Positions 9,776-41,700 of a DNA stretch of 64,000 nucleotides are shown one piece after another; positions within the stretch are counted from its first letter, which is position 1, and each line of letters starts with the position of its first letter. The stretch comes from Isoetes taiwanensis (lineage: Eukaryota; Streptophyta; Lycopodiopsida; Isoetales; Isoetaceae): assembly GCA_021234155.1 (NCBI GenBank), contig JAJEKV010000017.1, positions 16,705,478 through 16,769,477 on the forward strand, written 5' to 3'. A program made the translations under genes and the position numbers. The notes under the pieces were generated by a model. That model was not told the DNA's origin. It saw only the letters and a program-made list of their open reading frames with translations, and ran no database searches.

Positions 9776-10319
9776 GGTATATAAGGAAAAGAAAATCCAT
9801 GATTTATAATTATTGCGTGCAATATCCACGTGGGATCCGGTACCTCCACCGCCCCACACGCTCGGATGTTCCACGCCAGAGCAGGGGAGATTACCGAAAA
9901 GAGATAGGCTGGGGGTAGATAGGAAAATTTTTGCACCCCCAAGCCCTATGGCACGATTCCCTAGGAAGCATCTATAATGTCCAAAATAGAGCCTTTTTTC
10001 AAATTTCTTTTTTCCTAAGGGAATCTTTTTTTGCACTCTATAAGATTCTGGAATCTCTTCTCATAATGGAGCTCTTTTGAATTTGGCAAAAATGGAGCTA
10101 AGGAGTGGATGATGTGGCATTTGGAAATGATGACAAGGTTAGGTGGGTATGATGTGGCCAATGGGAATGATGACGTGTTAGTCAACTTGAGTTTGAAAGT
10201 TCTCTCTAGTCAAAAATTTTGAATGATGTGGAGATGATGTGTATGACAAGTGTGGAGTGATGAGGTGTCAATGGTGATGTGGCAACAATGATGCTAGTTA
10301 GATGCTTTGATATGGATTT
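9776..10319. other. Unassigned insert between A integrase and B
   Basis: About 540 bp matching neither A nor B. The left part (9780-9990) has a segment rich in C and G with no coding signal. The right part has many GATGATG/TGATGTGG repeats of low complexity. It may be flank of the site where B inserted, or part of whatever replaced A's reverse transcriptase. Confidence 0.4.
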
Positions 10320-14641: not shown

Positions 14642-14647
14642 ACTTCT

Positions 14648-15873: not shown

Positions 15874-15876
15874 TAT

Positions 15877-17004: not shown

Positions 17005-17026
17005 GAGTTCAGATTCCAGGAAAATG

Positions 17027-17044
17027 ATCTCGGTAGAACCTCCA
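17027..17044 (-). promoter_or_regulatory. Candidate primer-binding site of B
   Basis: TGGAGGTTCTACCGAGAT on the minus strand, three bases after the LTR end (17048). It is identical in sequence and spacing to the site in A. It begins TGG as expected for pairing with a tRNA CCA end. I could not name the tRNA. Confidence 0.65.
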
Positions 17045-17047
17045 AAA

Positions 17048-21555: not shown

Positions 21556-22926
21556 TCACTTTGGAATTTTAAAAACCTCATCAAAGTCTTGATCTTTCTT
21601 ACCATATTTTTGCTGAGGGGGTGGAGCTATGATTTGAGCAGGTGCTTCCACTACAGGTGGTGAAGACCTGGAAGTAGAATGCCTACTTGGTTCAGCATGT
21701 ACATGAGCTTCATTCATGCTTCTAGTTTGCACCACCATAACTTCTTCAGATTTGGGAGCTTCTGTAGCTTGAATAAATCTTATAGAGGTGCTTGGTTCAG
21801 CAAATCTCACAGGAGGTTTAGGCTCTAGTCTCTTTTCTTTTTCCTGCTTAGCAAAATATTCCTTAACAGCACACCTAGCATCAGTATGGCCAACTTCTTT
21901 ACAAAAAGAACAAACAAGACATTCCTTTCTAAAGTGGCCTTTTCTATTGCATTTGGGACACACTTGCCAATAGCAAATTTCTGATGGATGGGAATTCCTA
22001 TTGCAATGAATACATTCAGGGTAAGTTTTACCTATTCTTGCAGCCTTGAGTTCAACCAATTGTTTGGTTATTTCTGCTAAAGCTTCAGTAACCTTAGATA
22101 GGTCTGACTTGACCTCTGCAACTTGAGAATTTGCTTCCTCCTCTTTAGATTTCTTTTTTTCTTTCTGTATGGCATAAACTGGAATAGAAGGGTGATGATC
22201 ATAATGTGCATCAGAAGCATCAGGGTAGAAAGGATCATGGCTATGGTGAGAAACATGATGCTTGTCAGGCAAAGTAGAGAGCATCTGAGTTAGGTCATTG
22301 GTTTTGACAAAAACTTTGTATATAGAATCAAATCCTTCAGCAGCTTGGATCTTGAGCAGCTTCCTTTGGATATCTGGTCTTCTTTCCAAACCATTGATGA
22401 AAGCAGTAACCAAAAAAAGGGTTGGGATTGTAACTTGTGCTCTTTGACACCTGCTCATAAATATGCTAAACCTTTCTTTGTACTGATTCACACTTTCTCC
22501 TGCATGTATAGAAAAACCTTGCAACTCATTAACCAAATCCTTTGGAGCATCTAATTTACCAAATCTATCCAGGAACTTCTTGACGAGTTCATCCCATGAA
22601 GTGGTACCCATTAACTTTTCATAAGTTAACCAAGCACCAGCTTCACTCTCTTCTTTGAAGCATTTTTCAAACTCTGAAAGCTTGCAGCCTTTCTTGAAAC
22701 CATAATCCCTGTAATAATCCTCAAATATTCTCAAAAAGTTGTTAGCACTCATACTAGAATCAAAAGTAGGCAAAGGAACAGGAACATTCAACTCGAATTG
22801 GTATGGCATGTTTTGAAGCAGGCTAGTTGAGAAACTTGAAGGCAATGGCCTTTCTCTGCAATGATCTGGTGCATCAATATCTTCTAATGGTTCTTGTTCT
22901 GCTGGAAATTTTTGTTTTGGAGCCAT
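21556..22926 (-). pseudogene. Gag (fused to protease linker) of gypsy A
   Basis: Starts MAPKQKF at 22926; the longer frame to 22965 runs into the PBS and was not used. Capsid region NNFLRIFEDYYRDYG and WLTYEKLMGTTSWDELVKKF; three CX2CX4HX4C knuckles (CIHCNRNSHPSEIC, CPKCNRKGHFRKEC, CSFCKEVGHTDARC). The frame continues without a stop through VVQTRSMNEA, the start of B's separate pol frame, so Gag and Pol were one ORF here. It then hits a frameshift near 21556. Confidence 0.9.
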
Positions 22927-22946
22927 GAGTTCTGAAATCCAGGAAG

Positions 22947-22964
22947 ATCTCGGTAGAACCTCCA
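22947..22964 (-). promoter_or_regulatory. Candidate primer-binding site of A
   Basis: TGGAGGTTCTACCGAGAT on the minus strand, three bases inside the 5' LTR boundary (22968), identical to B's site. Confidence 0.65.
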
Positions 22965-22967
22965 AGA

Positions 22968-24265
22968 TGTTGACCTCAACCTGGCTAGAGAGTCAAACAC
23001 AAGAAGCCAACTTGAGTTTATGCTCAAGTTGGGGTTAGAACCTCCAGATCACTTAAGGTGATCAGTCTACACAAGAATTTCTCAAGAAAAAAGTTCAAAT
23101 ATCAAGCATTCATACCTTTCCCAATTCAAGAATATGGATCCCTTACTCAAATTGATGTAGCTCTTATAGGTGGATTGATTTCCAAGGTTAAATCGTTGTG
23201 ACTTGTACAGAAAAGTTATAGGCAAACAAGGGAGAAGATCTTGACCAAGTCTGAGTTCTAGTTTGCAAGATATGTGATCTCAAAGTTGGGTCAATTTTTT
23301 GTCAATATCAGTCAAAACTACAGGCAGATCTCAGAATTTTGTAACTTGAGTTGCAGATGGAATTCTGAATAGATTCCAAAGCAGAGATGAAGTATAGGTC
23401 CCAAAGGTGAGGGGCATCCAATCAAATCATAATTTGGATCATGAAAACTATTTTTTTGGCACTATTTTGTGAATAACAATCTAAAATTGTGTCAGACAGA
23501 ATGCAAAAAATGATAACTCGAGTTTAAAATAGTTTTTTTTCAAACGTTTTGTGCACACAGGTGCAAATGTGATGGGAAAAGAAGGGCAGCTGGTCATATG
23601 CAAGAAAAAATGATGGAATTTCTTACTGTAAAAATGTTTATGAGAAGATGAATAAAGGTCTTAGGATCATAAATCAATCATCAAAATATCTCAGGAGGTC
23701 ATAAAGTAATTTCATAACAGGAATATCAGTCCAATTTGCTCAAATCGAACTGTGGAACACTCAGATACTTCATAAACGTCTTCAGATCATGCTCAGCATG
23801 TATCAATGTTGAGGTTTGATGCGTCTGGGCCTTCAAAAATCTTCTGTCATTGTTTTCCCAGTATATATGTTTAGGTTTAACGGTTCCGGCATCTTAGAGC
23901 TTAAGTTTAGGCTTGATAGGATGCTTAAGGGCGGGAATACAGAAATAGATAGTTTTCATAGCCTAATGATTCCATTCCGGCGTGATTCGAGCAGGTTTCC
24001 AGACTTAGGGTTCTTCGAGGGTATTTTTCCAGAAATTTCGCGATACGGTGGCCGTATTTTTTTGGGGTATAAACTGAGAATATGTTGTATTTAGCAATTT
24101 TGAGAAGCTAGGCCATGGTTCCAAAGGTACCCAAAAATAATTATGAAGCTTTTAATCATTTGGGTCTATGGTAACCCTAATCTTTTGGGGAATATTCCAG
24201 GTAGATACCATAACTGGAATATTCCATGGGGGATATTTGGGTGGCATGGGTACTGAGGGCACAAT
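22968..24265 (-). repeat. 5' LTR of gypsy A, proximal part
   Basis: Direct repeat of 5689-7065, begins TGTTGACCTCAACC. It is interrupted at CAAT (24262-24265) by DNA transposon T1 and resumes at 31218. It lacks the 77 bp present at 6368-6444 in the other LTR. Confidence 0.93.
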
Positions 24266-25210
24266 AATGCTTTTTTTTTTTGACCTACTCAAAAAATCAT
24301 GTCGCGACATTGGTGCTGGTAAGGTGCTGATACCCGTCATCAAATTTTTTCGACGGCCCTTCACGTTTCGTCAAGCACTTCACCCACCATAGCCAGCCTT
24401 GAGCGGGAGTCAAGATCCATCATTCCTGCTATTTTTGGCCAAGTCATCGATCCCGAAATTTTAGTTTGCAATCTCCAATTCGAATTGGAATTTTCCCGCC
24501 CAATTCAAATGCCGCGACCTTGAGAATTATCTTTGTTTGGCGTTTTCTAGAAGCACAGACTATGGTTCTTGAGTTAAGAGATGAATTCCTTACTACGTGT
24601 CCAAGCATTGCGCAATTTGATGCGGGGAATCTTTGGCGGGCATGCAAGAGTTCAACAATTCCAAGCGATTTACGAGTCTTTGTTCACAATTTGCAGAAAA
24701 TTACCTCGAAGAATCACCTACACAAATCAATTTGGTACTCACATTTCATCAAAAGCGATTGGATTTCACAAGGAATGAAGAAACTACATATGAAGTCGAA
24801 AATTCGGATCAAGAATTCCATCATGAAGATGAAAGACAAGGTAGTCCTTGTTAAATGCTTCTGTTATTAAATTGCTGAATTTTTTTGTTCTAAATTGCTG
24901 ACTGATGTAATGCACTGCTTTCAGTGGAACAGAATTCATTCAATGGTGCTGAATTTATGGACTTTGAACATGATTTCAACATGTCGAGTATGCAATTTAA
25001 ATTTGTTACTTGGTTTATAAAAACTAAACTGACATGCTAAAATTACAGGAGAATATGGTGGAATCTCATTTGAGGATCTTTGAAGTTATGGATGTTGGCA
25101 ATCTTTGTAGAGGTTGGATCGATTTGTCATAATCTGGTACTTGCTATAATAGAGGTATTTGCATTGATAAATTTCGTTCTGACTGTAGTTAGAATTGTTT
25201 CATCAATGTA

Positions 25211-28207
25211 GGTGCTATGAACCATGCAGTGCTTGTAAACCAAGAAAATTATGAAGCCGCTTTCAAAAAAAGACAGGCCGAAATAAGGAGGATTCAAAGA
25301 CAGAAAAAAAAGAGAAGTGGATGCTGCAACTGGCAACTTAGGTGCAGTTGCAAATGATGCTACTGTTGGTAAGAAAGGTTCATTCAGCAGTTGGAAGAAA
25401 AGAAAGTTGTCAAAAGAATTAGGCAAGCTTGTGAACGAATTGTGTGAGAATGCTACATCTGAAGAAAGAGTGGAGAGTCTAGGGAGTGCTAGAAAGTGGA
25501 TACCTGAACTAGATCTCTCACACAACAAAGAATTAAACACAATGAAAACAATCATTAACAATTTGAGGGAGTCTTTTGCAGCTCATAAGTATTCAAAAAA
25601 TACAAATGTGTGGAGAGCAAGAAGTGCTGCAATGACTTTTACAGTCAATGGTGAAACTAACAAGTCTGCTTTTGCCAAGCAAATGAATCTGAATAGGAAG
25701 ATTGTGTCAGTTGCAGTAAATAGAAGATTGGCTGCAGAGCATGGTAGTGGACCATGGTCCATGTTCAAGAAGAATACTAGATTTGACAGACTCTCTTATG
25801 ATGAGAGGAAACTAATAGTTGACTTTTGGAGAGATAACACACGAGTGTCTCCATGCAAGAAACATGTTATAAGGATTAGAGTGGCTAAAGGATTCAAGAT
25901 CATGCATCCATTACACTTCCTGGAGGATACTCAGGTTAGTTTGATTGCACATGCTGGATGTTGTTACAATTGCTGTAATTGCTGTAATTCTGCTGTAATT
26001 GCTGTAATTCTTGTGTCTGTTTTTGCGGGTTTCATTTTACCAGCGTTTCAGAAGGGAGTATCCTAAGTTTGAGGTTTCTTTCTCAGTTTTGCATGCCTTG
26101 AAATCCCTTTATGTCAGGAAAGCAAAGGACAGAGAGACATGCTGTTGTGTGTATCATATGAGAGCAGATTTTATTCGACTTGCAATGAACAAAGTAAGAC
26201 ATGATGAAAAAATTCATGGTTCAAATTGTAAATGCACGTGTGAAGTTTGTGGTCCTAGACCAACATGCATGGCAAGGAAGAGCACCTATGCTTCAACAAG
26301 TGAGCTTTGGAGGTCTCTTGTTTGTCCAAGAGATGAAAGTGAAGAATGGTATGCACATGACTGCCTAACTCTCAAGTGTAATAAGTGTGGACCTAGCAAG
26401 CTGCCAACATGTCCAAAAGAAGTGAATTTCAAAAATGGTGTGCAGGTGGAGTGGAAGACATATGACAAGGTACTAAGATTGTTGCTGTTTTTTATGCTTC
26501 ATTATGGTGTAGCTTTATTTTTTATTTCTGTATTTGTTGTAGATATATGAATCTGTAGAAGAACTTGATGGCAAAGGAGGTTATAAGCTGGGAAAAAAAC
26601 CAGTCACTAAATTGGTTTACAAGACCACAAGTGCTGCTGATATTTTCCAGAATGCCAGAACAGTGCTGAAAGAATTCATTCCACACAACTATGAGGCTAG
26701 ATGGCAGGCCAGGCAATTCAAGGAGTGTTTGGAAACATTTCCAAAGGATGCAATAGTTTTAGTGATTGATTTTGCTGAAAATTACAGCTTCAAGATTCAG
26801 CAAGAAATTCAAAGTCTGCATTGGAGGAATGATCGGTGCACAATTTTAGTGCATATATCATATAGACATGCCACCAAAAGTGATGACCCTAAATTGGATG
26901 AAGATGAGAGAAGAATCATCAAAGAAACTCACTTCTACATTTCAGATGACAGGGAACATGACACTTTGTTTATGCAACATTGTTTGAACAGTCATGCAGC
27001 ATTTTTGTCCAGCAAACAAATCAAGTATAGCAGACATATTGTTTGGTCTGATGGATGTTCTAGCCAGTGGAAAGGAAGTAGAACATTTTACTTTCTAGGA
27101 AGAAATTATCAAACTAGTGGCATCCCAATAACTTGGAATTATTTTGCTTCTTATCATGGGAAAGGTAACTTTCATTTTCAAGCACCTAGAGTTAATGTTC
27201 ATTTCAAAGACTAATTTGATAGAGAAACAATTGAACATGATGGTCTTTGGAGCTGTCATTAAGAGAGCCCTAACTCATGAGATGTTAAAACGAAATTGCA
27301 TTGCCACTTAGAAATGCACATGATGTAGTGGTTTTGCAAAAACATTTCGGTGACAACATGACAATGGAAGGCAAGGACAGATCTGGTGTCTTTGTTGAAT
27401 TTGGATTTTTATACATTCCAATTTCTTTGAGCTTGTGAATGCTTGTGTTTGAATGATTTTTTGGGAAGTTGGCATAGGAGATGTTGATAGAAGTGAAAGG
27501 TATGATTGTGCAACTCTATCGGCTCTAGCAAATTTCATTCCATCGAGGCCTACTCAAAGAACCGACCCGACTCAAGTGGCACATATGAACTTCACTTGTT
27601 TACTGTCATAGCTTCTTTGGTTAGGGAAATATGCAAAGTGTCCCTACATTGCTAGAATAGGCATGTGGTCATACTCTGAATTAAAACCTATGGGTCTTTG
27701 GGCTCGTTGAGGAAGTTGTTGAAGGCCCTGTTTTTGAAGGAGATCATGAGTGGAAATCAGATATCATTGTTGTTGGAGATAACTTTCTTTGTCAATCTTT
27801 GAGCCTAACAACAAAGAAAAAGTAGACTTTTATATTTTAAAATGCACTAGAACAAAGCATGTTATAGAGAAAGCATACAAGGATCCTTTGGGGCAAAAGT
27901 TTGGTAGGAATGAAGTAGTTGTTCTTGGAAAATATTACAAGTTAATTAATGGTAACTTGTATGAATTGCTAGAACATGAGCGAGTCAAGGTATATCTGAC
28001 CATTTGGTTTTGGCTGTTAATTTTGATATGACCAGATTGAGGAACAACCTGTTTCAGCTCCCTGACATTGTGGAAGATCAAATTATGGATAGCTTGCATC
28101 AAAGCACATCCATTTATGCTCAAGAAGTTTTAGAGTCTAAAGGAAATGAGCTGAAAGGAAAGAAGAAATCAAAAGCAAAAGCAGCAAAAGGCAAAGATGC
28201 TTTGTGA
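25211..28207 (+). pseudogene. T1 transposase (spliced, DFAEN/SDG type)
   Basis: Exons 25317-25934, about 26045-26468 and 26542-27163 are joined by GT-AG introns, with further decayed exons to 28207. Order: basic coiled start; a helix-turn-helix-like region (NKSAFAKQMNLNRKIVSVAV, LSYDERKLIVDFW); a Cys-rich segment (CKCTCEVCG, CNKCG); then the catalytic part with VLVIDFAENYSFKIQQEIQ, HIVWSDGCSSQWKG and NYFASYHGKG, then EHDG and KRALTHEMLKRN in the next exon. Asp of DFAEN, Asp of SDG and the EHDG acidic pair are the likely catalytic residues. The Lys-rich C-terminus resembles a nuclear signal. An A-run frameshift at about 25310 and breaks after 27200 suggest it is dead. Confidence 0.7.
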
Positions 28208-28209
28208 TT

Positions 28210-28800
28210 CAAACTGTAAACCCTAAACCAATTTGTAAATTGTGAACCATATTGTAAATTGTAAATCATATTGTAAATTTGTAGGATCATATTGAAGTTG
28301 TCATAATTCATATGTTGTCAAATTGGTTGTCATAATTCATATGTAATCAAATTGGTTGTCAATCATAAACAATCATAAACAAATATGTAACCATAAACAA
28401 TCATATTGCTATCATATATTGCTATCATATGTAAACAATCATATTGCTATCATATGTAAACATATTGCTATCAATCATAAACAATCATTACTTGGAATGT
28501 AAACCTTATATTCATACTTGGAATGTAAACCTTATATTCATATGTACAGCTTATATTCATATGTACACCTTATATTCATACTTGGAATGTAAACCTTATA
28601 TTCATATCTAACATTGATATCAATCATATACAATCATATTGCTATCAATATACAAACCTTATACAAACATTGCTATCAATCATATACAATCATATTGCTA
28701 TTCATATGTAAACCTTGCTATTATGTAATACATAAACCTTATACATAAACCTTTTACATAAACCTTATATTAATGTAAACCTTGCTATTACATAAATATA
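28210..28800. repeat. AT-rich degenerate tandem array in T1
   Basis: About 590 bp built from short units such as AATCATATTGCTATCATATG and TTGGAATGTAAACCTTATAT, irregularly repeated, between the two convergent T1 genes. No coding potential. T2 has no comparable array in the matching place, so the array probably expanded within T1. Confidence 0.75.
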
Positions 28801-29613
28801 CAAAAAACATGTCAACACTATGGAACAAAATTGTGTTGCATGTATAGAAGATCCTCATAATATTTTAAAAAGAAAACATCCTCATAATATCCTCACGGGT
28901 CATCTTTGATAAGATGCCGGTAGATCTTTGAAAAGATCAAGCTAAATTCGAGAAAGTCTTGCCTTTTTTAAAAGCAAGATAATTTTCCTCGAGTGTACCA
29001 CCTGGAAGGATTTCTTCTTCAGAGTCTGCTCCATTATCCTGTGATAAATCTGCTAGAACTTCACCAATTTGGCTTTTAGCCATTGTCTGTTCAGCAAGCT
29101 CCTCTTCAGCATCATTGTTTTTTACATCTCCAGCATCTTGATCTTCTATAATCTTCAGCAGAAGCTTTTACAGCAATGTTAGACACATTTCTTGCAACAA
29201 GAATTCAATATTAACTACAACTAAATTGAACGTGGACTACTATTCAAATTTTCGCTTAGACTTACCATTTTTTTTCACTGCTCCAGGCTTGTTTCTTGCA
29301 AGGGTCTTCTTGTCTGCAGGTTGTCCAGTCTTTGCTTTGGGGGTCTTCTTGTGCGCAAGATTAATTTAAAATTAATGTAACTTAAAGAGAAGTTATAATA
29401 CTAAAACTAAATGTGTACCTTTTATGGGAGATATGTGAGCAAATTTACAGGACTTCTTTGTCAATATCTATAAGCTGCTCAAATAGAATTGAAGTTAGCA
29501 CAAAACAAAAACATTACAAGATACATTTGACAAGAATACTTACTTGCAAATGGGTTTGAGTCTTTCTTTGTTTGGCCCTTGTCTTCCTTTTTCTTAATTT
29601 TTTGCGCAGTCCT

Positions 29614-30918
29614 TTACGCTTTAAAGTCAAGACTTGCGGCTTTATTGTACAAAGTGGTCTTTGCTATCAACTTCATCCTTACGCTTCTTATCTTCATCAC
29701 TTTGTTTGCATTTTCAGTTTCTTCTATATCTTCATAGTTAGAGGCCTCTTCAATCACAACACTGAATTCTTTGAATCCCAGTTCCTGCAAAATATTGCTT
29801 GGGACTTCCTCTCCACAACAGGGAACCACACAGTGCATAGTTTTCAGCACAGTTGAAAAGCAAAAGACATGGTATTTATGTCCACATTGGTTTATTTTAA
29901 CAAACAGGTCATATTCTTGAGGAAAACAAAGGCCACATGCCTGACATACATCACTAGTTAGCAAAGGCAAAGAATAGACACCCATACCCAACTCCATCCG
30001 AGTTTTGGTACTTTCACTATCTTGCTGCATGGCTGAAATATGCTTAGCCTTTGCATGCCACTTCGCCATTGATGCCTCATAGGATGTTATTTCATCCTTC
30101 AGCATAGAAATTTCTGCACGAATGTGTTCTTCCCCTTTAGAATCTATTTTCAGAAGTGCTGACTCCAAAAGCTCTCGCATAACTGCTTCTTCATTCTTTA
30201 GTTTTGCAATAGTATCAACTTCTTCTGGAAAATGTAGTTCAAGTTCTTCTCTGGACTTTTGCTTGGACTGTATATTTTCATATATAGCTTTGCAATATCT
30301 GCTCCAGCAACAGCACCTTCTTTCCTCAATAAAGACTCTTGTTTTGATAATAGCAACTCCTTTGCATCTCTTTTCATCTCAGCAACCTTACCCAAGTGAT
30401 CCAAAATAGCGTTGCTATTCAAACAGTAGCTGCTGGTCTCTCCCTTAGAAATCTGGCGCTTAGATATTCGATAAGCTTCTGCGGCAAAACTAGCCCAGTT
30501 CACTTTGAATTGCCCAGGGTTTGACAAAGCTCGTTGGGTATTACTCCAAGCAAAAGCTCGAGCAAAGGTTACCCTAACCTCATTGTTGGTAGGCTTGCTT
30601 TTCTGATAAATTCTTTCCAGCAGGTCATGCAGCACAGTGGCGAACCGGGGCCTAACAAATTTTAAATTTATCTTTCCTTTCCGAAGTGGGCACTGCCAGA
30701 CATCAAGAAAATCACGGTCGGAAACATCCTTGGCCTTCAAATCCTTTGGCTTCTTCCCTTCATTACACAAACCTCTGTTTATGTGAAATTCATACTCAGT
30801 TCTTGCGAAAAGCAGTTCCTGATAACATCAAACAGTGTTTTTTTAGTTCAATATCAGTAGATAAAGAAAAAGGCATGAGAAATAGAGGGATTTTTACCTC
30901 GCCAGACTTGAGCGCCAT
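29614..30918 (-). CDS. T1 accessory protein with RING-H2-like finger
   Basis: The second gene of the transposon. A mini first exon (MALKSGE, 30918-30898, donor GTAAAA) is followed by the main exons: ELLFARTEYEFHINRG, a helical middle part (LNSNAILDHLGKVAEMK; coiled coil around DSKGEEHIRAEISMLKDEI) and a Cys/His finger CQAC...CGHKYH..C...HCVVPC. The spacing C-x2-C-x16-C-x-H-x2-H-x2-C-x9-C-x3-C fits a RING-H2 fold, typical of E3 ubiquitin ligases. The frames around 30190 need an intron or a frameshift to join. A Lys-rich piece at 29270-29350 may be another exon. The homologue in T2 is 34367-35721. Confidence 0.65.
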
Positions 30919-31217
30919 AGCTAGATGCTGGAATTCCTAAGAGTAGCAGAATGAACCGAACTTCCCAACCCAATTACACTTTCAATCAAGCTTCAAAATG
31001 AAAATGATCACGATTCGAGAATCCCTAGCTGCACCTAATCAATTCTGCCTGCGAAAATGTTTCGCGCGCAGGCCTGCACACCCTGCAAAAATGATGAAGG
31101 GCGTCCTTCAAAAATGATGAAGGGCGTCCTTCACGTCACGAGAAAAAGCTGAAAATAGGTGCTGAGCCGGTGCTGGAGCGTCGCGAAATTGAGTAGGTAA
31201 AAAAAAAAGCACCCAAT

Positions 31218-31752
31218 GGTAAATGAAGCAAGGAGGTATAAGGGATTGCAAATAAGAGTTAGGCTAAGGGCATTTGCAAAGGTGTGATATGGGGAATGAA
31301 AATAAAGCAAAGAGATATGAAATAGATAGGACATCCCATGGGGAAAATAAAATGTATTAAGAAAGGACTTAGGCAAAGCAAAATATGACTTGCAAAAGGT
31401 GAGCAAGGAAGAGTATGAGTATAAGGGAAAATGACTAGGGAAAATTCAAAAAGGAAGGTGAGAATATGGTATGGGAGTAGGTAAAAAATGGCTAAGGGAT
31501 GGAACCAAATACCATGGGATCTTCCAAACTCTAACTTCCAATCTTCAAAAAGCATCTTCCAATCTTCTTTAACCCAACATCTTTTTGACTAGCTTTAACC
31601 TCAAATGAAGTATTCCTTATGGGAGTTGACCGTGAAGATAAATATCCTTTGACCTTCATACCAATGTTGACTACCAAGACCTCCTTTGACTTAGCCTTCC
31701 TAACTTTAACAAATGAACCAATCAATTAGTATGTTTCCCTTTGGGGGCAACA
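31218..31752 (-). repeat. 5' LTR of gypsy A, distal part
   Basis: Continuation of the LTR after T1, matching 7070-7581, with the W-box cluster (five TTGAC cores) and the terminal hairpin, one arm mutated (TGTTTCCC). It ends CAACA at 31752, followed by target duplication GTACA. In element orientation this is U3, so T1 sits between U3 and the rest of the 5' LTR. Confidence 0.93.
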
Positions 31753-31757: not shown

Positions 31758-32050
31758 TGACTCAGTGCTTCTTCGAGGGCAAGCTTAGGTACAAAGTATC
31801 CTATGTATGGAGGGACTTCTTGCAAGTGGAATCCTAATTTGGTCTGGAATTCTTGCAAGATTTGCTGATAGAAGGGGTTTGCTGCTAGAGTGGTCGCAAA
31901 ATCAAATTCTTTCTGGAATACATTGAAAACTAGGTTAACATCGGCAACATGAGCTGAGGCACTATACCAAGTGATGAAGGATTTAGTGGCCATGTTGGAG
32001 CTGAAGTTGAGGATTGGTCCATTTGGATTGTTGTTAGTTGTTTCTATGTC
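31758..32050 (-). pseudogene. Element C ORF2, 5' half
   Basis: Starts MATKSFITWYSASAHV at 31993, or earlier in frame at about 32050 (TTNNNPNGPILNF), with an acceptor-like CACACAG before it. It continues FDFATTLAANPFYQQILQEF and VPPYIGYFVPKLAL up to the gypsy A target site. The frame resumes at 5683 after A. I do not recognise the family. It lies about 570 bp downstream of the H3-like gene, separated by two hairpins. Confidence 0.55.
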
Positions 32051-32153: not shown

Positions 32154-32224
32154 AGTAATCTGAGAATGCGCCAAGAGAGCATTTGGATCCTTGTAATGGT
32201 GCTCTCGCGCATTTTCAGATTAGT
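32154..32224. repeat. Hairpin HP3 (71-nt imperfect palindrome)
   Basis: Outer arms AGTAATCTGAGAATGCGC and GCGCATTTTCAGATTAGT pair almost fully; inner arms AGAGCA and TGCTCT pair again. It lies between the H3-like gene and ORF2. It is related to HP1 and HP2 with matching changes in both arms. Confidence 0.8.
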
Positions 32225-32355
32225 GGGCCTTGTTTTGGGTTCGATACTTCGACAAACCGGTGATATGATAACATAATTATGCTCTACTAGAGTAGTGGTG
32301 CTCAAATCTGGTCTTACTTTATGGTATAGGTACTAGAATTAGGAAACTATGGGCA

Positions 32356-32426
32356 AGTAGTCTGAGAATGTGCCATAGGGCAATTTGGACAGTCCAAATG
32401 TAGCTGTCGCGCATCCTCGGACTACT
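32356..32426. repeat. Hairpin HP2 (71-nt imperfect palindrome)
   Basis: Outer arms AGTAGTCTGAGAATGTGC and GCGCATCCTCGGACTACT; inner arms ATTTGGAC and GTCCAAAT. It lies about 140 bp beyond the H3-like gene's end on the minus strand. Confidence 0.8.
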
Positions 32427-32562
32427 GGGTATATTTTTGGTCTAAATTTATTTGTTGCATGAAACAAATTACACCTAGGTACAAACTAACAATTGTAGAG
32501 ACATTATCACATCATAACTTATATTTATCAAAAAGTTTTGCTTACATGAACTGTTATTTCTA

Positions 32563-33697
32563 TTATCTACTCGTTCTCTTGATGAACCTCTACAATGTTA
32601 AGTCTTTGTTCATTAGAGTCATCCTCTTTGCATGTAGAGCGCAGACCAAGGAGTCTTCGAAGTTCTGTACCAACTCCGTCTTTGTTGCTTCTTGGATTGC
32701 CAGCAGCATATTGTTGGTCACTCTGAATCCTGTGACGAACTCGTCCATTATCTCCTTAACAAGCCTCATGAATGGTGCTCGTGGTATTAGAAAGCTGTAG
32801 CTTTGCTGAAAATGCCAAATTTCTTTAGCAGCTCTTGAGAAGACCGAGTCTCTTCTCCGCTTCATCAGCTTCTTTGCTGGCTCAGGTAGAGTCTCTGGTG
32901 GAGGCTTCAAGGCGACCTGCTCTTTCGTGGGTTTGCCTCCCGTGATGTATTATATCCTATGAGCATCGTAGTACTTCTTATAGGCCTGGTACATCTTCAT
33001 GTAGGCCTGATAAGCAGCCAGCTCCTTCTTGTATTCCCTATCTTGGGACAGAACATAGGACTCCCGCACCGTTTCTAGCGGTTTCTTTTGTTTGTCGGGG
33101 ATGGGCTTCCACATGGGGAACGGTAGGACTGATGTCTCCTGTGCAGGTGCGTGTTCTTCCTCTAGTTTCTTGGGCTCTTCCTCCGACATGTCGGTTTCCT
33201 CACAAGATCCCTGGATGACTTGCCCGCTCCCGAATCCCTCTTCTCTATAATTCCGCTTGGATAGGCAACGAGCGATTTCCAACTCAGAATCTACGCCAGA
33301 CTCAGATTTTGGAGGGGTGGTTTCGTTGTCCGGTTCCCTCTGTGTGATAGTGATCCCCCCCATCTTCTATTTCTTCGGCGTAGTCTTGGTCTTTCTGCGC
33401 GGCTGGGCTTGTCCGTCCTATTCGTGCTCTTCTGTTTCCTTGCCTTTTCCTTTCATGTTCTCTCCCTTTTTCATAGTTTGCTCCGCATGCCTCTCTTCCT
33501 TCCTCTTCCTCTTTTCCTCGTTTGTTGCCTGCTTCTCTGCACGCTCTAGGTTTTAAACGTCTGGCCTTCTTATTCAGTTTGGTGGTGTCTTTGTCCTTGG
33601 TCTTAGAGTGCTCGAGCTTTTGCTGACAGGCGAGGACCTAGGCACTTGCGAATTCTAGAGGAGTCATCTTCCTTGCCGTCTGTTTGGTGCAGGCCAT
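32563..33697 (-). pseudogene. Histone H3-like gene with long tail insertion (decayed)
   Basis: The ATG at 33697 begins MACTKQTARKMT, nine of ten residues equal to the H3 tail MARTKQTARK. The R2-to-Cys change is one CpG transition; K4 and K9 are kept. About 230 residues of charged, low-complexity sequence follow (PKKLEEEHAP, YKKELAAYQAYMKMYQAY). Then comes a complete H3 fold at 32850-32590: KEIWHFQQSYSFLI, PFMRLVKEI, LLAIQEA, FEDSLVCALHAKRMTLMNKD. It aligns to canonical H3 without gaps and its reading ends at the H3 C-terminal position (stop at 32565). Decay: TAG at codon 20, a frameshift probably at the G7 run near 33358, TAA at about 32948, and TAG after KDLTL. Loop 1 has canonical H3 length, so it is not an obvious CENH3. 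No intron is seen. Confidence 0.85.
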
Positions 33698-33800
33698 GTG
33701 CAAAATCTTTCGAATCGGAGGTCGAACGCCTAAAAATCGCGTCAGGAGCGGAGAGCAAGAATCGAAGTTGAAACCCTAACTTATGATAGGTCGAGGTCCC

Positions 33801-33808
33801 TATTTATA
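33801..33808 (-). promoter_or_regulatory. TATA box of the H3-like gene
   Basis: TATAAATA on the minus strand, 104 bp upstream of the H3-like ATG. Telo-box-like AAACCCTAA (33771-33779) lies near the expected start of transcription, as in many plant genes. Hairpin HP1 is a further 110 bp upstream. Confidence 0.6.
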
Positions 33809-33920
33809 GAATTGGGCAATTTTTAGGGTTTGGCATGGGAAAATGGTATTACTTAATTTCTTAAATAATTAGTGTTTGGTAGCTTCAAATGCCTTAGTTC
33901 TTTAGGACATTTTGGGTTTG

Positions 33921-33988
33921 AGTACTCTGAAAATGTGCCAGAAGGTCATTAGGATAGTCCTAATGTCCTCGCACATTCTCAGATTACT
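33921..33988. repeat. Hairpin HP1 (68-nt imperfect palindrome)
   Basis: Outer arms AGTACTCTGAAAATGTGC and GCACATTCTCAGATTACT; inner arms CATTAGGA and TCCTAATG around TAG. Located upstream of the H3-like promoter. Confidence 0.8.
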
Positions 33989-34366
33989 AGATGGTTTGTT
34001 TAAGATATTTATTCATTGGTAATTCTACTGCGATATCCTAGCTTCAAATTTAATCATGGGTGCTTTTTTGCTTAACCTACCCAACTTTTTGAAGTTATAG
34101 CACCTTACCAGCACCTAAATTAACGAGCACAGACGGGCTCGGACGGGCTCATGATGGGCTCGTGACGTGTTTGAAGTGACGGACTGACGGGTTCTGACGG
34201 CTTCAATTCCGACGGTTATACTCTGACGGCCATCATCATAGAATTTTCGCGCGCAGCCACCTTACCTTGCATTCGAGCTCTTGAACAAACTTATCTCCCA
34301 AGCTTTGTGTATTTGTACTCTGTTTTTCTTCCTTTGCAATTCCGGCAGCTCTTTTGCAACTATACC

Positions 34367-35721
34367 ATGAGTTCTCCCCAGGCGCCAGAGGTATCGCATT
34401 TTTTGCTATCTTTTTTTAGAAAATGTTTGTGCTTCAAACAAATTTATAATAAAGTACTCAAATGTAAGTGGTTTTCTTGTTTTATTATATTTAATTTGAA
34501 GCCGGCAAGAACACGATATGAATTCTTTGAGTTTGGAAAGTGGAGTCGTCGGAAGAAAGCCAAGCCAAATCAAGGCAAAAGAAGTATCAAATGCTGAATT
34601 TTTATCGGTTTTTGAAGTTCCTTTGAGGTCGGGAAGATCAACATCAAGGAAATCAAGCAGCATTCGAAAGCGAAGTTCAATGAACTCCTTGAAAAAGTAT
34701 ACCAGAATGGCCCTACCAACAATGAAGTGAGGACTCGTTTTGCAAGAGTATTTGTATGGCGAGAACACCCCTAAGGCTTTTGGTGACCGAAAATTACAAG
34801 GTAAATTGGGCATCTTTAGCGCCAGACTCCCGCATTTTCGTAGTTCATAAGAGTAAAGATCATGAAGTAAATTGTTTTGAAGCTAACCTCAATGTGATTA
34901 TCAATCACATTAGAAGCTTGTCAGACATGAAATTAAAGGAAAAAAGGCAGCTTTGTTGAAGAAGGTAGGTGCAGTGCAATGTGCTGATGCTACTTGCACT
35001 TTATTGTAAGCAAATTTCAGAGAAGAGAGAATCTATCAAACTTTACAGTGCAGATTTGCCTAACAACCAAGCTTTGGTTGCATACTTGAAGAAAGAAGAA
35101 GCAAGTTTAATGGATTTACTTTCTGAAACTATTGGGAGTGCTAATGTTGCTGATGCAGAAAAGTTGAAGGAAGAAATCAAATCCTTGGAAGTGAATATTG
35201 AAGCATATGGCCATAGGATGGAGTTTTGGAATGCAAAGTCCAAACACATATCTACTATGCAGATTTTAGCCAAAGGTAAGAAGGAACTCAAAGTTCACAT
35301 GGGTGTTTATGATCTGCCTCGAGATCAATTTGCTGAAAGATACAGTTTTCTTACCAAGTTATCATGTGATCATAAATGCTTTGGTTCTGTCTTGGATACT
35401 ATGCATTGTACAGTGGCAGGTTGTGGGGTAGAAGTGCCTGACAAGCTTGAGCAAGAACTTGGTTACTTTAAAGCAGATGAAGATGAAGTAACCGAGGAGT
35501 ATGAAGAGTCTTCTGATGAAGATGTGAAGGTGACAAAGGTCACAAAGGTGAAAGGAAAAGGTAAAGACATGGGTGAGGATTCCAACTCTGTTACAACTGA
35601 GTATGACAAACCTATTTCCAAAGATTTTGTTGCTAAGAGGAAAGGCAAGAAGAAGATTCTTAGGAGCAGCAACAAGAAAGCAAGATCGGGAAGTCGGTCA
35701 AGTCCTAAGAGGCGTAACTAG
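34367..35721 (+). pseudogene. T2 accessory protein (degenerate RING region)
   Basis: Homologue of the T1 accessory gene with the same plan: mini exon (MSSPQAPE, 34367-34390, donor GTATCG), then ARTRYEF, a helical part (AEKLKEEIKSLEVNIEAYGHRMEFWNAK as coiled coil) and the finger region. The first C-x2-C pair of the RING-like finger is deleted; what remains is SCDHKC...MHCTVAGCG. The C-terminus is acidic then very basic (VAKRKGKKKILRSSNKKAR), ending RRN at 35721. Frame changes near 34740 and 34960 break it. Confidence 0.65.
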
Positions 35722-37099
35722 TCCCGAACATGAGATCCCAACAACTCTGTTACACCGGGTTCTCCACTTGCTTCTCCTGTTACACATGCTTCTCTGTTAC
35801 ACCTCGCTGCGATTCTGGCTCCAACACATGAAGAGCCTACTCCTTCAAAGTCACCATTCACAGATATCCAATCGATGAGGAAGACCTCACTCTTGCGAGA
35901 GAAGTTTATAAGGAATTTGGATAAGCGGTTGCTAGCTTTGCGGTGTTAAAGTTGAAGTTTGGTTTTGAAACAATCTTAAGTTTTCAATGTTAAGCTGCGC
36001 TCTGTCGGGTAAATTTTGAGTATGATCCGCAATTTTGTGAATATATGATGTGTCTCTAAGTTATTGAATATGTAAACTACATGTTGAATATGTGACAGTC
36101 CGCAATTTTTTGAATGTGACCATGTGCGTAACCACTTGAACATATGAACTTTGTGCTTCTTTAAAATTTTGTATATATTTTTTTCTTCATTGGTTCAGTT
36201 CTCTTGTTTATGCAAAGTGTTTTGTACACTGTAACCAATTCTTACAATTCAAAGCGATATTCTCGCAATACCACGGAAGAATTAAAACAATTCAAATGAT
36301 ATTCAAACAATTCAATTGATACGCAATACCACAGTATATTCGCAATACAATTCAAACATGCATACAGCTCAAATTCTATTTGCCCTTTCCCATGGTTTAT
36401 GGCTTGCACACAATCTTAAAGATCATCGAGAGACAATTCCAAGTGATTATACTACTAAAGAAACTTTGAACACTCTCATTTGCAAATCTTAGCTCATTGC
36501 CGTGTCATTGACCAATTTTTTACTGGTCAATGACGATCTTTTGAAATAGCTAAGTGCATCCGACTTGAGAGAAAGTTTTATATCTACTTAAGTACATCTC
36601 TCAAGCATATAAACCAATTTGGATTCAACACGAAATACATTAAGGCCTGCTAGCATTTGGCATTTGAAGTACAGTCTTTTTTCTCGAATTGGGAAATCGA
36701 TTGCAAACCGCGTGTAACAGAGCTTCATTCTTGCAAGATCAAGGTATAGATTGGTTGCCATGTGCAACCCTGGAGGTCCTGCACCAACTCAATTGAGGGA
36801 TTACCGGGATCGCAACCAAATCTTACATTTCAAAATAAAACGCAACTAGTTCTTACTATTCAAACTAGATTCTCGCAATAGCAAAAAAGAATGAAACTTT
36901 TCTTTATTACTTGAATATGAATGTTACAATTGAATACAATTTGGTTAGCACTAGCAATGCTTGTATGATAGTAAAGAATTCATTTGGTTCCATTTCTCAT
37001 TGAAGAACTTCGGTCTTGAGGCTGTGCTCATCCTCATCTACTAAGCTATCTGCATAAAGACTACTCTTGTGCTCCAAAACTTCGATCTAAAAGATGATC
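35722..37099. other. T2 interior between the convergent genes
   Basis: About 1.4 kb without an ORF of note. 36230-36360 and 36830-36900 share short phrases (TTCTCGCAATA, ATTCAAAC) that look like a weak internal repetition. No other function seen. Confidence 0.4.
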
Positions 37100-40000
37100 A
37101 TGAACATCCTTTGGAAGTTTGTATATGTTTTCACTTACGACCACCATATCAAAGCAACACGACATGACCAAGTGGTTGTATGCATTGCACTCGGTGCATC
37201 TTCAAGCAATTCAAATTCACTACCTCCTAAAAACTTATAATACTTACCCGAGAGGACCACTTCTCTTCTAGCAAATTTAGCACCCCATGCATCTTTAAAT
37301 GCCCTCTCTACAATGTGTTTAGGCTTAGTGCATTTGATGATGTAGAAGTCTACCTGTTCCTTGTTGTTGGCCTCGGATGGTGCTTTTGCAAAATTATCCC
37401 CAACATCAACTACATCAGAAACCCATTCATGATCCCCTTCATAGATAGGACCTGTAATGTTTCCATTTCGTCTTCAAGACTGGAATTAGTTGAGAATAAA
37501 CCCAAGATCCTATTACGCTTTTGTTTATGCACTTCCCAAACTTTCACCCGCCTTCCAAAAGAATAATGAAGCAACCTGAAATCCATATGAGCAACCCGAG
37601 TAGGGTCATTGGAATGCATGTGTCTGATACAATGCAACTTTTCGAAACTGTTAATGTCTTACAATCATGATCATCACTTCTATCAACCTCATTGATAGCT
37701 ATCTCCCAAAAAAATATCGCAAAAGGAATCATGTAAAATAACATGCAATGCAAACAACATGTAAAACCTGAACTACTGTGTACCTGCAAGGATGATCTCC
37801 TTCATTGTCACAATTTGACTTAAAATGTGCTCTGCAAAACACAACTGCATCATGTGCATTCCTTAGTGGTACTGAATTCCTCTTCAACATCTCATGTGTG
37901 AGGGCTCTTTTATTACAAAGACAAAGCACCATCATGCTCACCGCAAGGATTGATTCTGTAATTTTTAAAGAAATGCCAATTAAAAAAGAACCAATAGACT
38001 AAAATAAAAGTAATTACCTTTGCCATGATATGATGCAAAGAAATTCCAGTGTATTGGTTTTCCAGTGCTTTGAAAGAACCTGCCTAGGAAGTAGAACATC
38101 CTCCACATGACATGATTCTTGTAATGGACACCCTTGTCAGCAAGGAAAACTACATGTTTTTGCAAACAATGTTGAACGAAGAGTACATCATGTTCTCTAT
38201 CATCACTTATGTAAAAATGTGTTTCCTTAATGATCTTTCTATTCTGTTCTGTAGAAGGTGGAGCATGCCTATATATGATGTGCACCAAAATGGTGCATTG
38301 GTCATTCCTCCAATGCAAGCTTTGTATTTCTTGTTGGATTTTGAAGGTGTAGTTCTCTGCAAAGTCAATCACTGAAACTATAGTGTCCTTTGGAAAAGCT
38401 GCCAAACACTCCCTAAACTGTTTTGCTTGCCATCTGGCTTCATAATTATGAGGGATGAATGGAATGAGGAAGGTATCGACAAATTGGAACAACTCGCATC
38501 TTGGTGTCGCGTCTTGTAAACAAGCTTGTTGACGGGTTTGGGAGCTTCCTACAAAAGAAGCAAAAACATATATCGATTACCACCTTTTTTGGATTTAACA
38601 TTTCAAGTTACTTGTAATACCTTCTTCTTAGCCTTCCGGATCTTTTTTCGACTGAATTCTCATCAACAGTCTTACCAAAGCACCACCTTTCTTACGTCAC
38701 GAATTCGAATTCTCGGAGATCTTGCCAAAGCCACCACCTTTCTTTTCCGACCCGGCCTTTGTTCTTCCCTGCATTCTTCTCAGCAGCTCCTTTCTTCTTA
38801 ACAAGTTTTTCCTTCTCAGCAAATGTTACCTTGTCCTCCTCATAAACCTGTTATGTTCAAAAGAAGAGTTTGAGCTGAAAAGAATATCTCATTTAAGAAT
38901 AACAATTTGAATTACCTTATCAAATGTCTTCCAATCTACTTGATGGTTCAACTTGTAATCTCTTTCTTTTTTGGACAAGTTGGCACTTTGTTTTTTCCAC
39001 AAGCCTTGCATTTAAGCCAGACAATTATGTTGATGCCACTCTTACGATTCATCCTTAGGACATACCAAAGATCTCCAAAGCTCAGAGGTTGAAGCATATG
39101 TAGCTTTAGATGCATTGCAGGTTGGTCCTATACCACATACATCACAATTGCATGTGCAATTTGGACCATGGAGGTCCTGACATATGGAGGCTTTAGAGCA
39201 TGAAATGCTGTAAATGATATTTGAAAGTATGGATATTGCCTTTCAAATCGTTGGAAGAAAACTTCTTTGCGAAAGAACAACATATCAACAACCTTAAGTT
39301 GAAAATCTTAAACCTTAACAATTTGAAAACAAATTGCTTTAAAATTACCTGTGTCTCTTCAAGAAAGTGTAGTGCATGCAATATCTTCTTTCCAGAAGTT
39401 GCTTTTATCTTGATGACATGTTTCTTACATGGGGAAACTCTTGTATTGTGTCTCCAAAAATCCACCACTAGTTTTCTCTCGTCATAAGAGAGTTTGTCAC
39501 ATCTAATCTTATTTTTGAACATGGACCATGGACCCTCACCAAGTTCAGCATCTACTCTTCTTCTTACAGCAGTTGTGACAATCTTTCTGTTCAGGCATAG
39601 AGTTCTGGAGAAAGCTGATTTGTTAATATTGGTATTGACAAAGATAAACCATGTGACAATTCTTGCCCTCTTAATATCTGTTTTCTTCTCATTCTTATGA
39701 TCTGCAAAAGAGTTCTTTAAATTCTCCACAATTTTCTTCATTCTGATTCATCCTTGGAGTTAGGAACAACAAGTTCGGTAGCCACTTTGCGTGAGACTTA
39801 ATTATCTCTTTCCTATCCCTACAACTTGCATTAACAAGAACCTCTTTCACCTTCACTGCAACCTTTTTTGATAGCATTCTCTTCTTCCATGTGCTTAGAT
39901 CACCTTGGAGCAATGCTTCTTCATCTGCTGCAATTTCCCTTTCCCTCTTAAGCTCTCTCTCTTTTCTCCTTAACTCAGCTCTATACCTTCTAAAAGCATG

Positions 40001-40480
40001 ACAATCTGCTAGAAAAAAAGAATCTGAAGTGAAAAAAGTCAAAGAAACCTTTGTAGAGTTGTTAAATCATGCAAACCTTGCTTACCTTGAAAATGAGGTT
40101 GATCATGACATTGGGTTCCTTGTGTATTATCTTGATGACACCCTTCATAACAAGAAAGACAACAAAGATTAGCAAAAGAAAAGTTCAAAGTAAATTCAAG
40201 GAATCCAATTCCTTGAAATCGACTTAAAGAAGGTTGCACACCTTCTTCACTTTGGACATCTTGAGTTCCCTGTTGGCGCCACCCTTCAGACTCTTGGAAA
40301 TCACCTTCATGGTAAGAAGGTTGCAAATCTTCATGAAATGCAGACTCTTCATTGTCTCCATAAGGTTCGGGATTGTGACGGTAAACATTTTCTAGAATTA
40401 AAGCAAACATCAACAAATAAGGAAAGAAATCAACAACAAATATGTAAGTTCAAAATTACCTGAATCTATAGGAATTGATG
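37100..40480 (-). pseudogene. T2 transposase (inactivated)
   Basis: Homologue of the T1 transposase. Recognisable parts: the coiled N-terminus (RAELRRKERELKRER, 39960), the HTH-like region (NKSAFSRTLCLNRKIV, LSYDERKLVVDFW; 39450-39640), the Cys-rich segment (CTCNCDVCG, about 39140), VIDFAENYTFKIQQEIQ (38350), NFFASYHGKG (38030), KRALTHEMLKRN (37890), and a C-terminal part near 37320. Against T1, the block with the SDG Asp and QWKG is deleted (HVMW joins directly to MFYFLG), which removes a catalytic residue. Several stops and frameshifts lie between. Confidence 0.7.
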
Positions 40481-41189
40481 TAGCCATATGTAACTGATCA
40501 GTTCAAAGCAAACTCATAGATTAATATGCATTTCAGCATACATGAAAATGAAATGCATCATGATCCTCAATTACCATGGTAAATATCTAGCACAAATTCG
40601 CTTGCATTCGGCCCGAAACTTGTTGGCTCTGTTCTTGAATGCACTTGCGGATTGCGACAAATTGCATCGACAATTCGGGAACAACCGCCAAAAAAATTTT
40701 CACCGACTGAAAACTTGGAGGCTAGATAGCGGTTTTGCAACATCAAAATTAACTTGATTCTTGCACCACGGATGCATGCGAAAAGCTTCTCTCCATTCCG
40801 CCATAGATAGGCGTAATTGGAGAAATCTAGCAAAGAAAAGAAATTCATGGTATTTATACTCTGAAGAACTTCAAAACCGCCAAATTTACTTTCAAATTGC
40901 TTGCCGAACATGGCGTCATCACCTCGCATCAGCAGCACGGATCAACAACCCGCACGGATTGCTGAAGTGGCAATTTCCTGGGCTTCGGAAATTTGGCGCC
41001 CAGGAGGAAATGGCGGGTGAAGTGCTATGACGAGCGAAAAAAATTTCACTTGACGGGTCCAGCACCCGACCAGCACAAGCGTCGCCCACATAAAAAGTTG
41101 AGTACCTTAAAAAAAAACACACCCTCATAAGCTATAATTGATTCTTCTTTTTATCTTTGGACTTACGTTTTACTGCTGGAATAATTCTA

Positions 41190-41400: not shown

Positions 41401-41700
41401 GGCTCTGATACCATTGTGACGTCCCCCGATCATATACGATGCTCCCATCGTACACAAACTGGAGATTCCCCCCCTTTGGCCATGCTACCATCGAGAGGCC
41501 ACCCATCTGACGTGGGATTCCCAATGGCGGGCAGGAATCCTACGTGGGAGGACTAAACGTGCTATTTACCCCGTCTCCCTCGGGACCCACCTAGCAATGC
41601 GGAAGCGTGTAACATAAGTACATAACAACAATAATACATATAACCACCTCGAAGGGTGAACATCACCATAACAACATAAGCTATTATCATAATAACATAT
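41401..41700 (-). mobile_element. LTR-retroelement 5' end: PBS and LTR remnant
   Basis: On the minus strand TGGTATCAGAGCC (41413-41401) is the classic primer-binding site for plant initiator-Met tRNA. One base away an LTR-like end starts TGTGACGTCC (41415 onward on the plus strand). The far end of the LTR is not defined. It is oriented so that the H3-like gene, ORF2 and ORF3 lie downstream of the PBS on the same strand. Confidence 0.6.

What the first reader, a model, noticed from the sequence alone, without database searches (positions are those of the whole stretch)
32563..33697. Histone H3-like gene with an H3 tail mimic inside a mobile-element remnant
Seen: MACTKQTARK at the start, a charged insertion of about 230 residues, then a gap-free H3 fold that stops at the H3 C-terminus. 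Known: canonical H3 is about 135 residues with a short tail. Inference: a divergent H3 whose tail and fold were both kept, with a spacer three times longer than the rest of the tail. It has a TATA box and is followed by two more ORFs and hairpins on the same strand, downstream of an LTR primer-binding site. An element that supplies its own H3 could mark or evade chromatin silencing.
Basis: partly seen in the sequence, partly recalled or inferred. Interest (0 to 1): 0.93.

Follow-up and report, generated by a model that had tools for sequence, protein, structure and literature searches.

The report
Retrotransposon family carrying histone H3
In a plant genome that looks like the quillwort Isoetes taiwanensis, a large family of retrotransposons carries a long gene that ends in a histone H3 fold and, in one subfamily, starts with a copy of the H3 tail tip; selection has kept the histone part, so these genomic parasites may build their own nucleosomes.

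Summary
Tail (33697-33668) and fold (32832-32566, 39 of 89 residues identical to canonical H3, no gap) lie in two frames with premature stops: this copy is dead. It is the first ORF of an LTR retrotransposon: LTR, primer site, TATA box, H3 fusion, second ORF, gag; its pol and second LTR were not found.

Relatives are many in the window's own genome. Of 8705 histone candidates 150 were scored; all passed, 15 at host-H3 score. M-A-x-T-K-Q-T-A-R-K occurs 1097 times, host genes included (reversed control 0). One relative's tail-plus-spacer finds 147 places; 40 run full length without a stop, at least 30 with the fold directly downstream. One other locus read at length has gag, RT, RNase H and two LTRs. 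Within subfamilies median fold dN/dS is 0.01-0.05, other parts of the ORF 0.09-0.18; copies were mostly picked for open frames.

So the element supplies its own H3. Nucleosome entry is inferred; its benefit is untested. Closest case in print: a fungal hAT DNA transposon with an H3-like gene, 26 copies (PMC3538342). I found none in a retrotransposon, but several searches failed.

The parts
41415..41630 (-). 5' LTR of the H3-carrying retroelement (right edge approximate; ends ...GACGTCACA next to the PBS)
   Evidence: window 41348-41851 matches L007 9399-9883 at 72.5%; right edge judged by eye from the sequence
41402..41413 (-). primer-binding site TGGTATCAGAGC (type recalled as initiator tRNA-Met)
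   Evidence: exact match, one base from the LTR end; same place in L007
41190..41225 (-). one arm and centre of a leader inverted repeat, other arm not recognisable
33920..33990 (-). inverted repeat (hairpin) upstream of the ORF1 promoter
   Evidence: z -7.7
33800..33809 (-). TATA box CTATAAATAG, about 100 bases before the ORF1 start
   Evidence: TATA at the like place in L007, by eye
32563..33697 (-). ORF1: H3-tail start + charged spacer + H3 fold, broken by stops and a frameshift
33668..33697 (-). H3 tail tip MACTKQTARK
   Evidence: 1097 genome matches to M-A-x-T-K-Q-T-A-R-K, host H3 genes included
32833..33667 (-). charged spacer between tail tip and fold, with a TGGK motif near 32940
   Evidence: 33366-32953 homologous to L054 (0 of 3000 shuffles as good) and to L007 (0 of 5000); 33637-33305 only weakly (11 of 3000)
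32566..32832 (-). H3 fold, residues 47-135 of H3, gap-free, one TAG at 32592
32356..32427 (-). inverted repeat between ORF1 and ORF2
   Evidence: z -4.0
32158..32229 (-). inverted repeat between ORF1 and ORF2
   Evidence: z -6.1
31758..31993 (-). ORF2, first part (MATKSFITWYSASAH...), cut by a later LTR element
   Evidence: reading continues at 5687, with a frame change, when the flanks of the 5-base duplication are joined
5427..5687 (-). ORF2, second part
   Evidence: 44% identical to L007 6646-7050
4350..4862 (-). further coding region after ORF2, no known domain
   Evidence: 36% over 86 aa to L007 5986-5732; no Pfam match over cut-off
1361..1630 (-). gag remnant of the same element
   Evidence: 60% identical over 90 aa to the L031 gag, itself PF03732 at 1e-10
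5688..31752 (-). younger LTR retroelement inserted into ORF2 (itself a nest); not part of the H3 element
   Evidence: LTRs 5688-7581 and 22967-24265/31214-31752, 5-base duplication GTACA
34058..41124 (.). DNA transposon inserted between PBS and ORF1; not part of the H3 element
   Evidence: terminal repeats and TCAT duplication read from the sequence; DNA likeness to the element at 24266-31213

Best explanation
The window holds a dead copy of ORF1 of a Ty3/gypsy-type LTR retrotransposon family that carries its own histone H3. ORF1 encodes a long N-terminal part joined to an H3 fold, with a TATA box in front of it in the window copy and L007; one subfamily keeps the H3 tail tip at the start of the protein (shown by sequence). 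Inferred next step: the protein pairs with host H4, uses host H3 chaperones and is built into nucleosomes, carrying its large N-terminal part outward in place of the normal tail with its K14-K36 marks. Inferred purpose: such nucleosomes on element DNA are poor substrates for H3K9/K27-based silencing, so the element stays expressible. Likelihoods: element-encoded H3 under selection 0.97; enters nucleosomes 0.6; anti-silencing as the main benefit 0.35.
For: Family: 150 of 150 scored candidates over the Pfam cut-off in the own genome, 15 at host-H3 score, many others in open frames of 300-494 aa; 150 of 150 scored with the window's fold. Element context: L031 has ORF1, ORF2, gag, RT, RNase H and an LTR pair 88% identical; the window has LTR, PBS, ORF1, ORF2, gag; L007 has the same order with RT and RNase H. 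Selection: median fold dN/dS 0.046, 0.014, 0.008 within three types and 0.050 between types where dS was finite (6 of 62 pairs); N-terminal domain 0.118, 0.127, 0.085 within types; tail-bearing subfamily L054-L055 fold dN 0.020, dS 0.934, rest 0.116 and 0.600. Fold identity to host H3 79-86 of 97 in 15 copies. Tail tip: 1097 matches, control 0; residue 2, left free in the pattern, is R in 95 of the 100 listed. H113, R116, T118 and D123 of H3 are unchanged in the window.
Against: No expression, protein or chromatin data. dN/dS rows were picked from high-scoring, mostly open frames; for the closest tail-bearing pair (L055-L057, dS 0.22 and 0.11) the rest of the ORF has dN/dS 0.43 on few changes, and the linker between types 0.36 (12 of 62 pairs finite), so constraint outside the fold is uneven. 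The tail-bearing subfamily has P for R63 and other changes near DNA, so ordinary nucleosome entry is less sure there. Three of the four N-terminal types in open copies lack the full tail tip, and so does L007. The window copy cannot act. Its pol and 3' LTR were not found in window 1-5687 or 9 kb to the left. Only three loci (window, L007, L031) were read with enough flank to see gag or pol; L031's gag-pol frames are split, so it was not shown to be intact.
Confidence: 0.5

Rival explanations
1. Targeting: the H3 fusion tethers the element's integration or particle machinery to nucleosomes, as chromodomains are thought to do in chromoviruses; the N-terminal part binds Gag or integrase.
For: ORF1 was present in all three loci read at length (window, L007, L031), and its N-terminal domain is itself under constraint (median dN/dS 0.085-0.127 within types); plant Ty3/gypsy elements carry chromatin-reading domains (passages of PMC3350952).
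Against: ORF1 lies upstream and apart from integrase; a fold kept at up to 86 of 97 residues suggests use inside a nucleosome rather than mere tethering.
Confidence: 0.22
2. Decoy: the H3 tail tip and fold soak up H3 writers, readers or chaperones, or lower host H3 supply, without stable nucleosome entry.
For: Tail tip M-A-R-T-K-Q-T-A-R-K kept in the subfamily, R at free residue 2 in 95 of 100 listed, some of them host genes.
Against: Three N-terminal types lack the full tail tip yet keep the fold.
Confidence: 0.15
3. Packaging: the H3 fusion coats or compacts the element's cDNA or RNA in the particle or nucleus.
For: Basic linkers and spacers; leader inverted repeats near ORF1 in several copies.
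Against: H3-specific residues recalled as needed for H4 and the H3-H3 contact are kept; a mere nucleic-acid coat would not need them.
Confidence: 0.08
4. Passive passenger: a captured histone fragment copied along without function.
For: Gene capture by mobile elements is well documented (PMC3538342 passages); many copies carry stops.
Against: Fold dN/dS 0.01-0.05 with near-saturated synonymous change between types, and 0.02 for L054-L055, though on copies chosen for open frames.
Confidence: 0.03

Closest known systems
H3L-carrying hAT DNA transposon of Pyrenophora tritici-repentis (PMC3538342; passages seen)
   Same: A mobile element that carries an H3-like ORF with insertions in the tail and a variable fold, multiplied in the genome; ESTs reported.
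   Different: DNA transposon with TIRs, 10 long and 16 short nearly identical copies; here an LTR retrotransposon, far more copies, a long N-terminal part fused to the fold, and diverged copies showing purifying selection.
Single viral H3 histones (xenomavirus, Dishui Lake phycodnavirus, others) and bracovirus H4 (PMC9145170; section on single H3 read; other passages)
   Same: Parasite-encoded single core histone close to the host's, some with an extended N-terminal tail, thought to join host nucleosomes.
   Different: The three extended viral H3 tails there are longer by 35, 53 and 68 residues; ORF1 here is about 240-325 residues longer than H3 (378 codons in the window, 400-459 aa in aligned copies). 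DNA viruses rather than a retrotransposon; six single viral H3s are listed there.
Plant Ty3/gypsy chromoviruses, Tcn1 and Galadriel clades (PMC3350952; passages seen)
   Same: Ty3/gypsy elements of lycophytes with a chromatin-related domain.
   Different: The chromodomain binds methylated H3 (its place at the integrase end is recalled); here the element supplies H3 itself as a separate upstream ORF.
Centromeric H3 (CENH3)
   Different: No longer loop 1; the best 60 solved-structure matches of the L054 fold are named H3, H3.1-H3.3 or H3.3C.

Membership tests
Histone H3 | H3-type histone fold over its full length | tested here: met
   PF00125 E 3e-21 window, 2.1e-40 L031, 4.4e-21 L054; PDB best hits H3
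Histone H3 | short tail A-R-T-K-Q-T-A-R-K-S-T-G-G-K... directly before the fold | tested here: not met
   tail tip kept only in one subfamily and parted from the fold by a long spacer; other types start MPRFK, MEEVK-like, MANTK
CENH3 | longer loop 1 than H3 (recalled) | tested here: not met
   window fold is gap-free against H3; L054 fold aligned to H3.3 without gaps
CENH3 | centromere location | not tested
   no chromatin data
Ty3/gypsy LTR retrotransposon | two LTRs | tested here: met
   L031/L053: 878 aligned bases, 88% identical, going on into L056 at 91%; outer ends and target duplication not seen. Window copy: only one LTR found
Ty3/gypsy LTR retrotransposon | primer-binding site after the 5' LTR | tested here: met
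   window exact; L007; degraded in L031 (by eye)
Ty3/gypsy LTR retrotransposon | gag, RT and RNase H of gypsy type | tested here: met
   L031 PF03732 1e-10, PF00078 4.2e-23, PF17917 1.2e-33; window gag only
Ty3/gypsy LTR retrotransposon | integrase after RNase H | tested here: inconclusive
   L031 9047-9301 no Pfam match; 9793-9999 PF24626 below cut-off; likeness of L031 9047-9301 to L007
Chromovirus | chromodomain at the integrase end | tested here: inconclusive
   not seen in L031 9793-9999, but the piece ends with the locus
hAT H3L element | TIRs and hAT transposase | tested here: not met
   L031 has LTRs and RT instead; no transposase family was searched for as such

The most novel reading that the evidence does not exclude
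A retrotransposon family that encodes its own nucleosome: a great many copies make an H3 fusion which, with host H4, marks element chromatin as a private state that the host's H3K9/K27 silencing cannot write on, kept under selection through deep subfamily splits while its outer part changes faster, as in an arms race over nucleosome make-up.
Probability: 0.3. Interest if true: 0.96.

Novelty: new variant of a known kind. Interest (0 to 1): 0.88.

Why it matters
Known retrotransposons read, target or resist host chromatin; this family appears to make a chromatin component. A core histone fold kept under strong selection inside a selfish element would be a natural test of which H3 residues and tail marks the host needs to silence transposons, and of how far an H3 tail can be replaced. 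It also warns that histone surveys of such genomes may count transposon genes as host histone variants.

Tried and rejected
Host H3 variant or simple retrocopy: rejected by copy number, shared spacer and element context. CENH3: disfavoured by loop length and best matches. H3 as cargo of the DNA transposon at 34058-41124, my first idea: rejected when its terminal repeat was found to lie outside the H3 gene. Endogenous virus for ORF2 and the 4350-4862 region: no support. Neutral decay as the whole source of the fold's divergence: unlikely, and the divergent relatives are conserved. Hairpins: of twelve tested as single-stranded DNA, four are within 2.4 sd of shuffles (L039, L033, two of three in L050), eight are at z -2.6 or below; their role is unknown. 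A tree of fold sequences put the window copy on a branch of 4.1 changes per site, so it says nothing on origin. L007's fold remnant is weak by itself (37 of 5000 shuffles as good; no BLASTP match). The window's 33637-33305 piece against L054 is weak (11 of 3000). Related loci in viral contigs: none. Distant protein search with the fold and with 4350-4862: none.

Full report
Check of the observation. On the minus strand the window reads MACTKQTARKMT from 33697 and, in the next frame, a spacer and an H3 fold that ends with a TAA at the H3 C-terminus. The fold ORF 32593-32949 matches Pfam Histone at 3e-21 and PDB H3 chains at best 4.3e-21. It is 39 of 89 identical to canonical H3 47-135 without a gap. 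The copy is broken: at least three premature stops and one frame change, by my reading of the stop list. A neutral simulation gave 3.8 stops on average; of 3000 further runs 286 had 1 or fewer stops, 45 a BLOSUM score as high and 122 as many positive pairs. So much of the divergence probably arose while the protein was still selected; the relatives below make this firm.

What surrounds it. The region is a nest. A younger LTR element (5688-31752, duplication GTACA) sits in ORF2; it holds another LTR element and, in its right LTR, a DNA transposon at 24266-31213. A second transposon of that family lies at 34058-41124 between the primer site and the H3 gene. Taking these away, the older element reads on the minus strand: LTR from 41415, primer site TGGTATCAGAGC at 41402-41413, inverted repeats, TATA at 33800-33809, H3 ORF, two inverted repeats, ORF2 (31993-31758 and 5687-5427), a coding region at 4862-4350, gag at 1630-1361. 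Neither pol nor a second LTR of this copy was found in window 1-5687 or in 9 kb to the left (L052).

Second element by sampling. Of 19 stretches of the own genome (182 kb), one, L007, gave matches to the spacer, ORF2, the 4350-4862 region and the LTR with primer site. L007 has LTR end, primer site, TATA boxes, an ORF1 whose spacer (0 of 5000 shuffles as good) and linker up to the H3 alpha-N region (0 of 5000) match the window, ORF2, RT and RNase H. Its fold proper is only a remnant (37 of 5000 shuffles), and its ORF1 starts MAKPNRSG, not with the tail tip.

The family. In the own genome (1,658,258,908 bases, 1110 contigs) the Pfam histone model gave 8705 first-look candidates; 150 were scored and all 150 passed the cut-off. 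The first look is loose, so 8705 is no copy number. Fifteen score 164-165 bits, and the eight of these that were fetched are ordinary H3. The other 135 score 144-155 bits, most starting at profile position 10-25, that is without the H3 tail directly in front, many in open frames of 300-494 aa. I fetched 21 of these, mostly chosen for long open frames (337-494 aa); 16 of the 21 are open from a recognised start to the H3 end. One of the 16, L040, has lost the stop after the fold and was left out of the alignment, which has 15 rows. Three N-terminal types appear: MPRFK-like, MEEVK-like and MANTK. L031 carries, after ORF1, an ORF2, gag (PF03732, 1e-10), RT (4.2e-23) and RNase H (1.2e-33) in several frames; its LTRs are 88% identical over 878 aligned bases.

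The tail-bearing subfamily. The window's fold finds 150 of 150 scored relatives (7916 in the first look) at 57-79% identity, self apart, many in long frames without stops. The pattern for M-A-x-T-K-Q-T-A-R-K has 1097 matches, reversed control 0; host H3 genes are among them, and I did not check how many of the rest are followed by a fold. Residue 2 was left free and is R in 95 of the 100 listed. I fetched five places for this subfamily: L054 and L055 are open over the whole fetched stretch, which ends before a stop codon; L057 has one stop; L058 has two frame changes and a stop; L059, the relative closest to the window by fold (79%), lacks the front part. L055 has R in place of T3, so even here the tip varies. 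The window belongs here: its fold is 74 of 118 identical to L054 and its 33366-32953 spacer matches L054 (0 of 3000 shuffles as good), while 33637-33305 is weak (11 of 3000). The 273-residue tail plus spacer of L054 finds 147 matches (141 of 21553 candidates scored). By my count of the printed rows 40, L054 itself among them, run from residue 1 to at least 267 without a stop; for 30 of these 40 a fold lies directly downstream (against 39 of its 150 rows). The other ten may lie beyond the rows scored or typed.

Selection. Among 15 open copies the fold has median dN/dS 0.046, 0.014 and 0.008 within the three types (36, 6 and 1 pairs; dS finite in 35, 6 and 1) and 0.050 between types, where only 6 of 62 pairs have finite dS. 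The N-terminal domain has 0.118, 0.127 and 0.085 within types (24, 6 and 1 finite; none of 62 between), the linker 0.175, 0.127 and 0.179 within and 0.363 between types (12 of 62 finite). L054 against L055: fold dN 0.020, dS 0.934; rest 0.116 and 0.600; L054 against L057 is alike (0.015, 0.678; 0.108, 0.596); L055 against L057, a close pair, has fold 0.010 and 0.221, rest 0.048 and 0.111, that is 0.43 for the rest on few changes. These copies were picked from high-scoring, mostly open loci, which biases dN down, for the fold most of all since the score was on the fold. Fold identity to host H3 is 79-86 of 97.

How it may work. Shown by sequence: an H3 fold fused to a long N-terminal part, encoded as the first ORF of an LTR element, with a TATA box in front in the window and L007, kept by selection in the copies compared. 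Inferred: pairing with H4 and nucleosome entry, from the kept H3 core. Inferred and untested: protection from silencing, because the normal tail with K14-K36 is replaced, and in the other types the K9 context too. Tethering of integration, decoy and packaging are the rivals.

Organism. Assembly size fits Isoetes taiwanensis: 1658.30 Mb in 204 scaffolds and 909 contigs (1113, against 1110 here); its paper reports Gypsy elements as 10.7% of the assembly, and the word histone does not occur in its main text (abstract and passages of PMC8566536). The naming is my inference.

Comparison with print. The nearest case found is the fungal hAT element with an H3-like gene (passages of PMC3538342), then single viral histones (PMC9145170). 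Searches in whose listings I saw no retrotransposon-borne histone: (listings were capped; held 18, 44 and 15 papers, of which 16, 8 and 10 were listed); five other searches failed. The library lacks most subscription papers, so absence from print is not shown.

Noticed in passing
window 24266-31213 and 34058-41124: Two diverged copies of a roughly 7 kb DNA transposon with T-rich terminal repeats, 3-4 base target duplications, a DDE-like protein (DFAENYSF...WSDGCSSQWKG; likeness recalled, no Pfam match) and a facing gene with a RING-like Cys/His cluster; the family was not identified.
   Followed up: partly
window 33920-33990, 32356-32427, 32158-32229; L007 9236-9325, 9056-9145, 7511-7600; L044 301-380; L050 176-365: Inverted repeats of about 70 bases stand in the leader and, in the window and L007, between ORF1 and ORF2; their sequence differs between the elements but repeats within one. 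Not all fold better than shuffles. They may be packaging or protein-binding sites.
   Followed up: partly
window 31993-31758 with 5687-5427; window 4862-4350; L031 2915-3706: ORF2 and the following coding region are shared by the window copy and L007 but match no family; L031 has an ORF at the same place whose kinship to ORF2 was not tested.
   Followed up: partly
window 5688-31752: Nest of LTR retroelements: outer LTRs 95.5-97.7% identical, inner pair 10319-11015 and 17866-18559 99.1% identical, so the H3 copy is older than both insertions.
   Followed up: yes
window 42102-45088, minus: Receptor-like kinase gene with leucine-rich repeats (by eye), just beyond the LTR of the H3 element.
   Followed up: no
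window 57865-58139 and 58415-59125: Tandem arrays with 19-base and about 295-base units.
   Followed up: no
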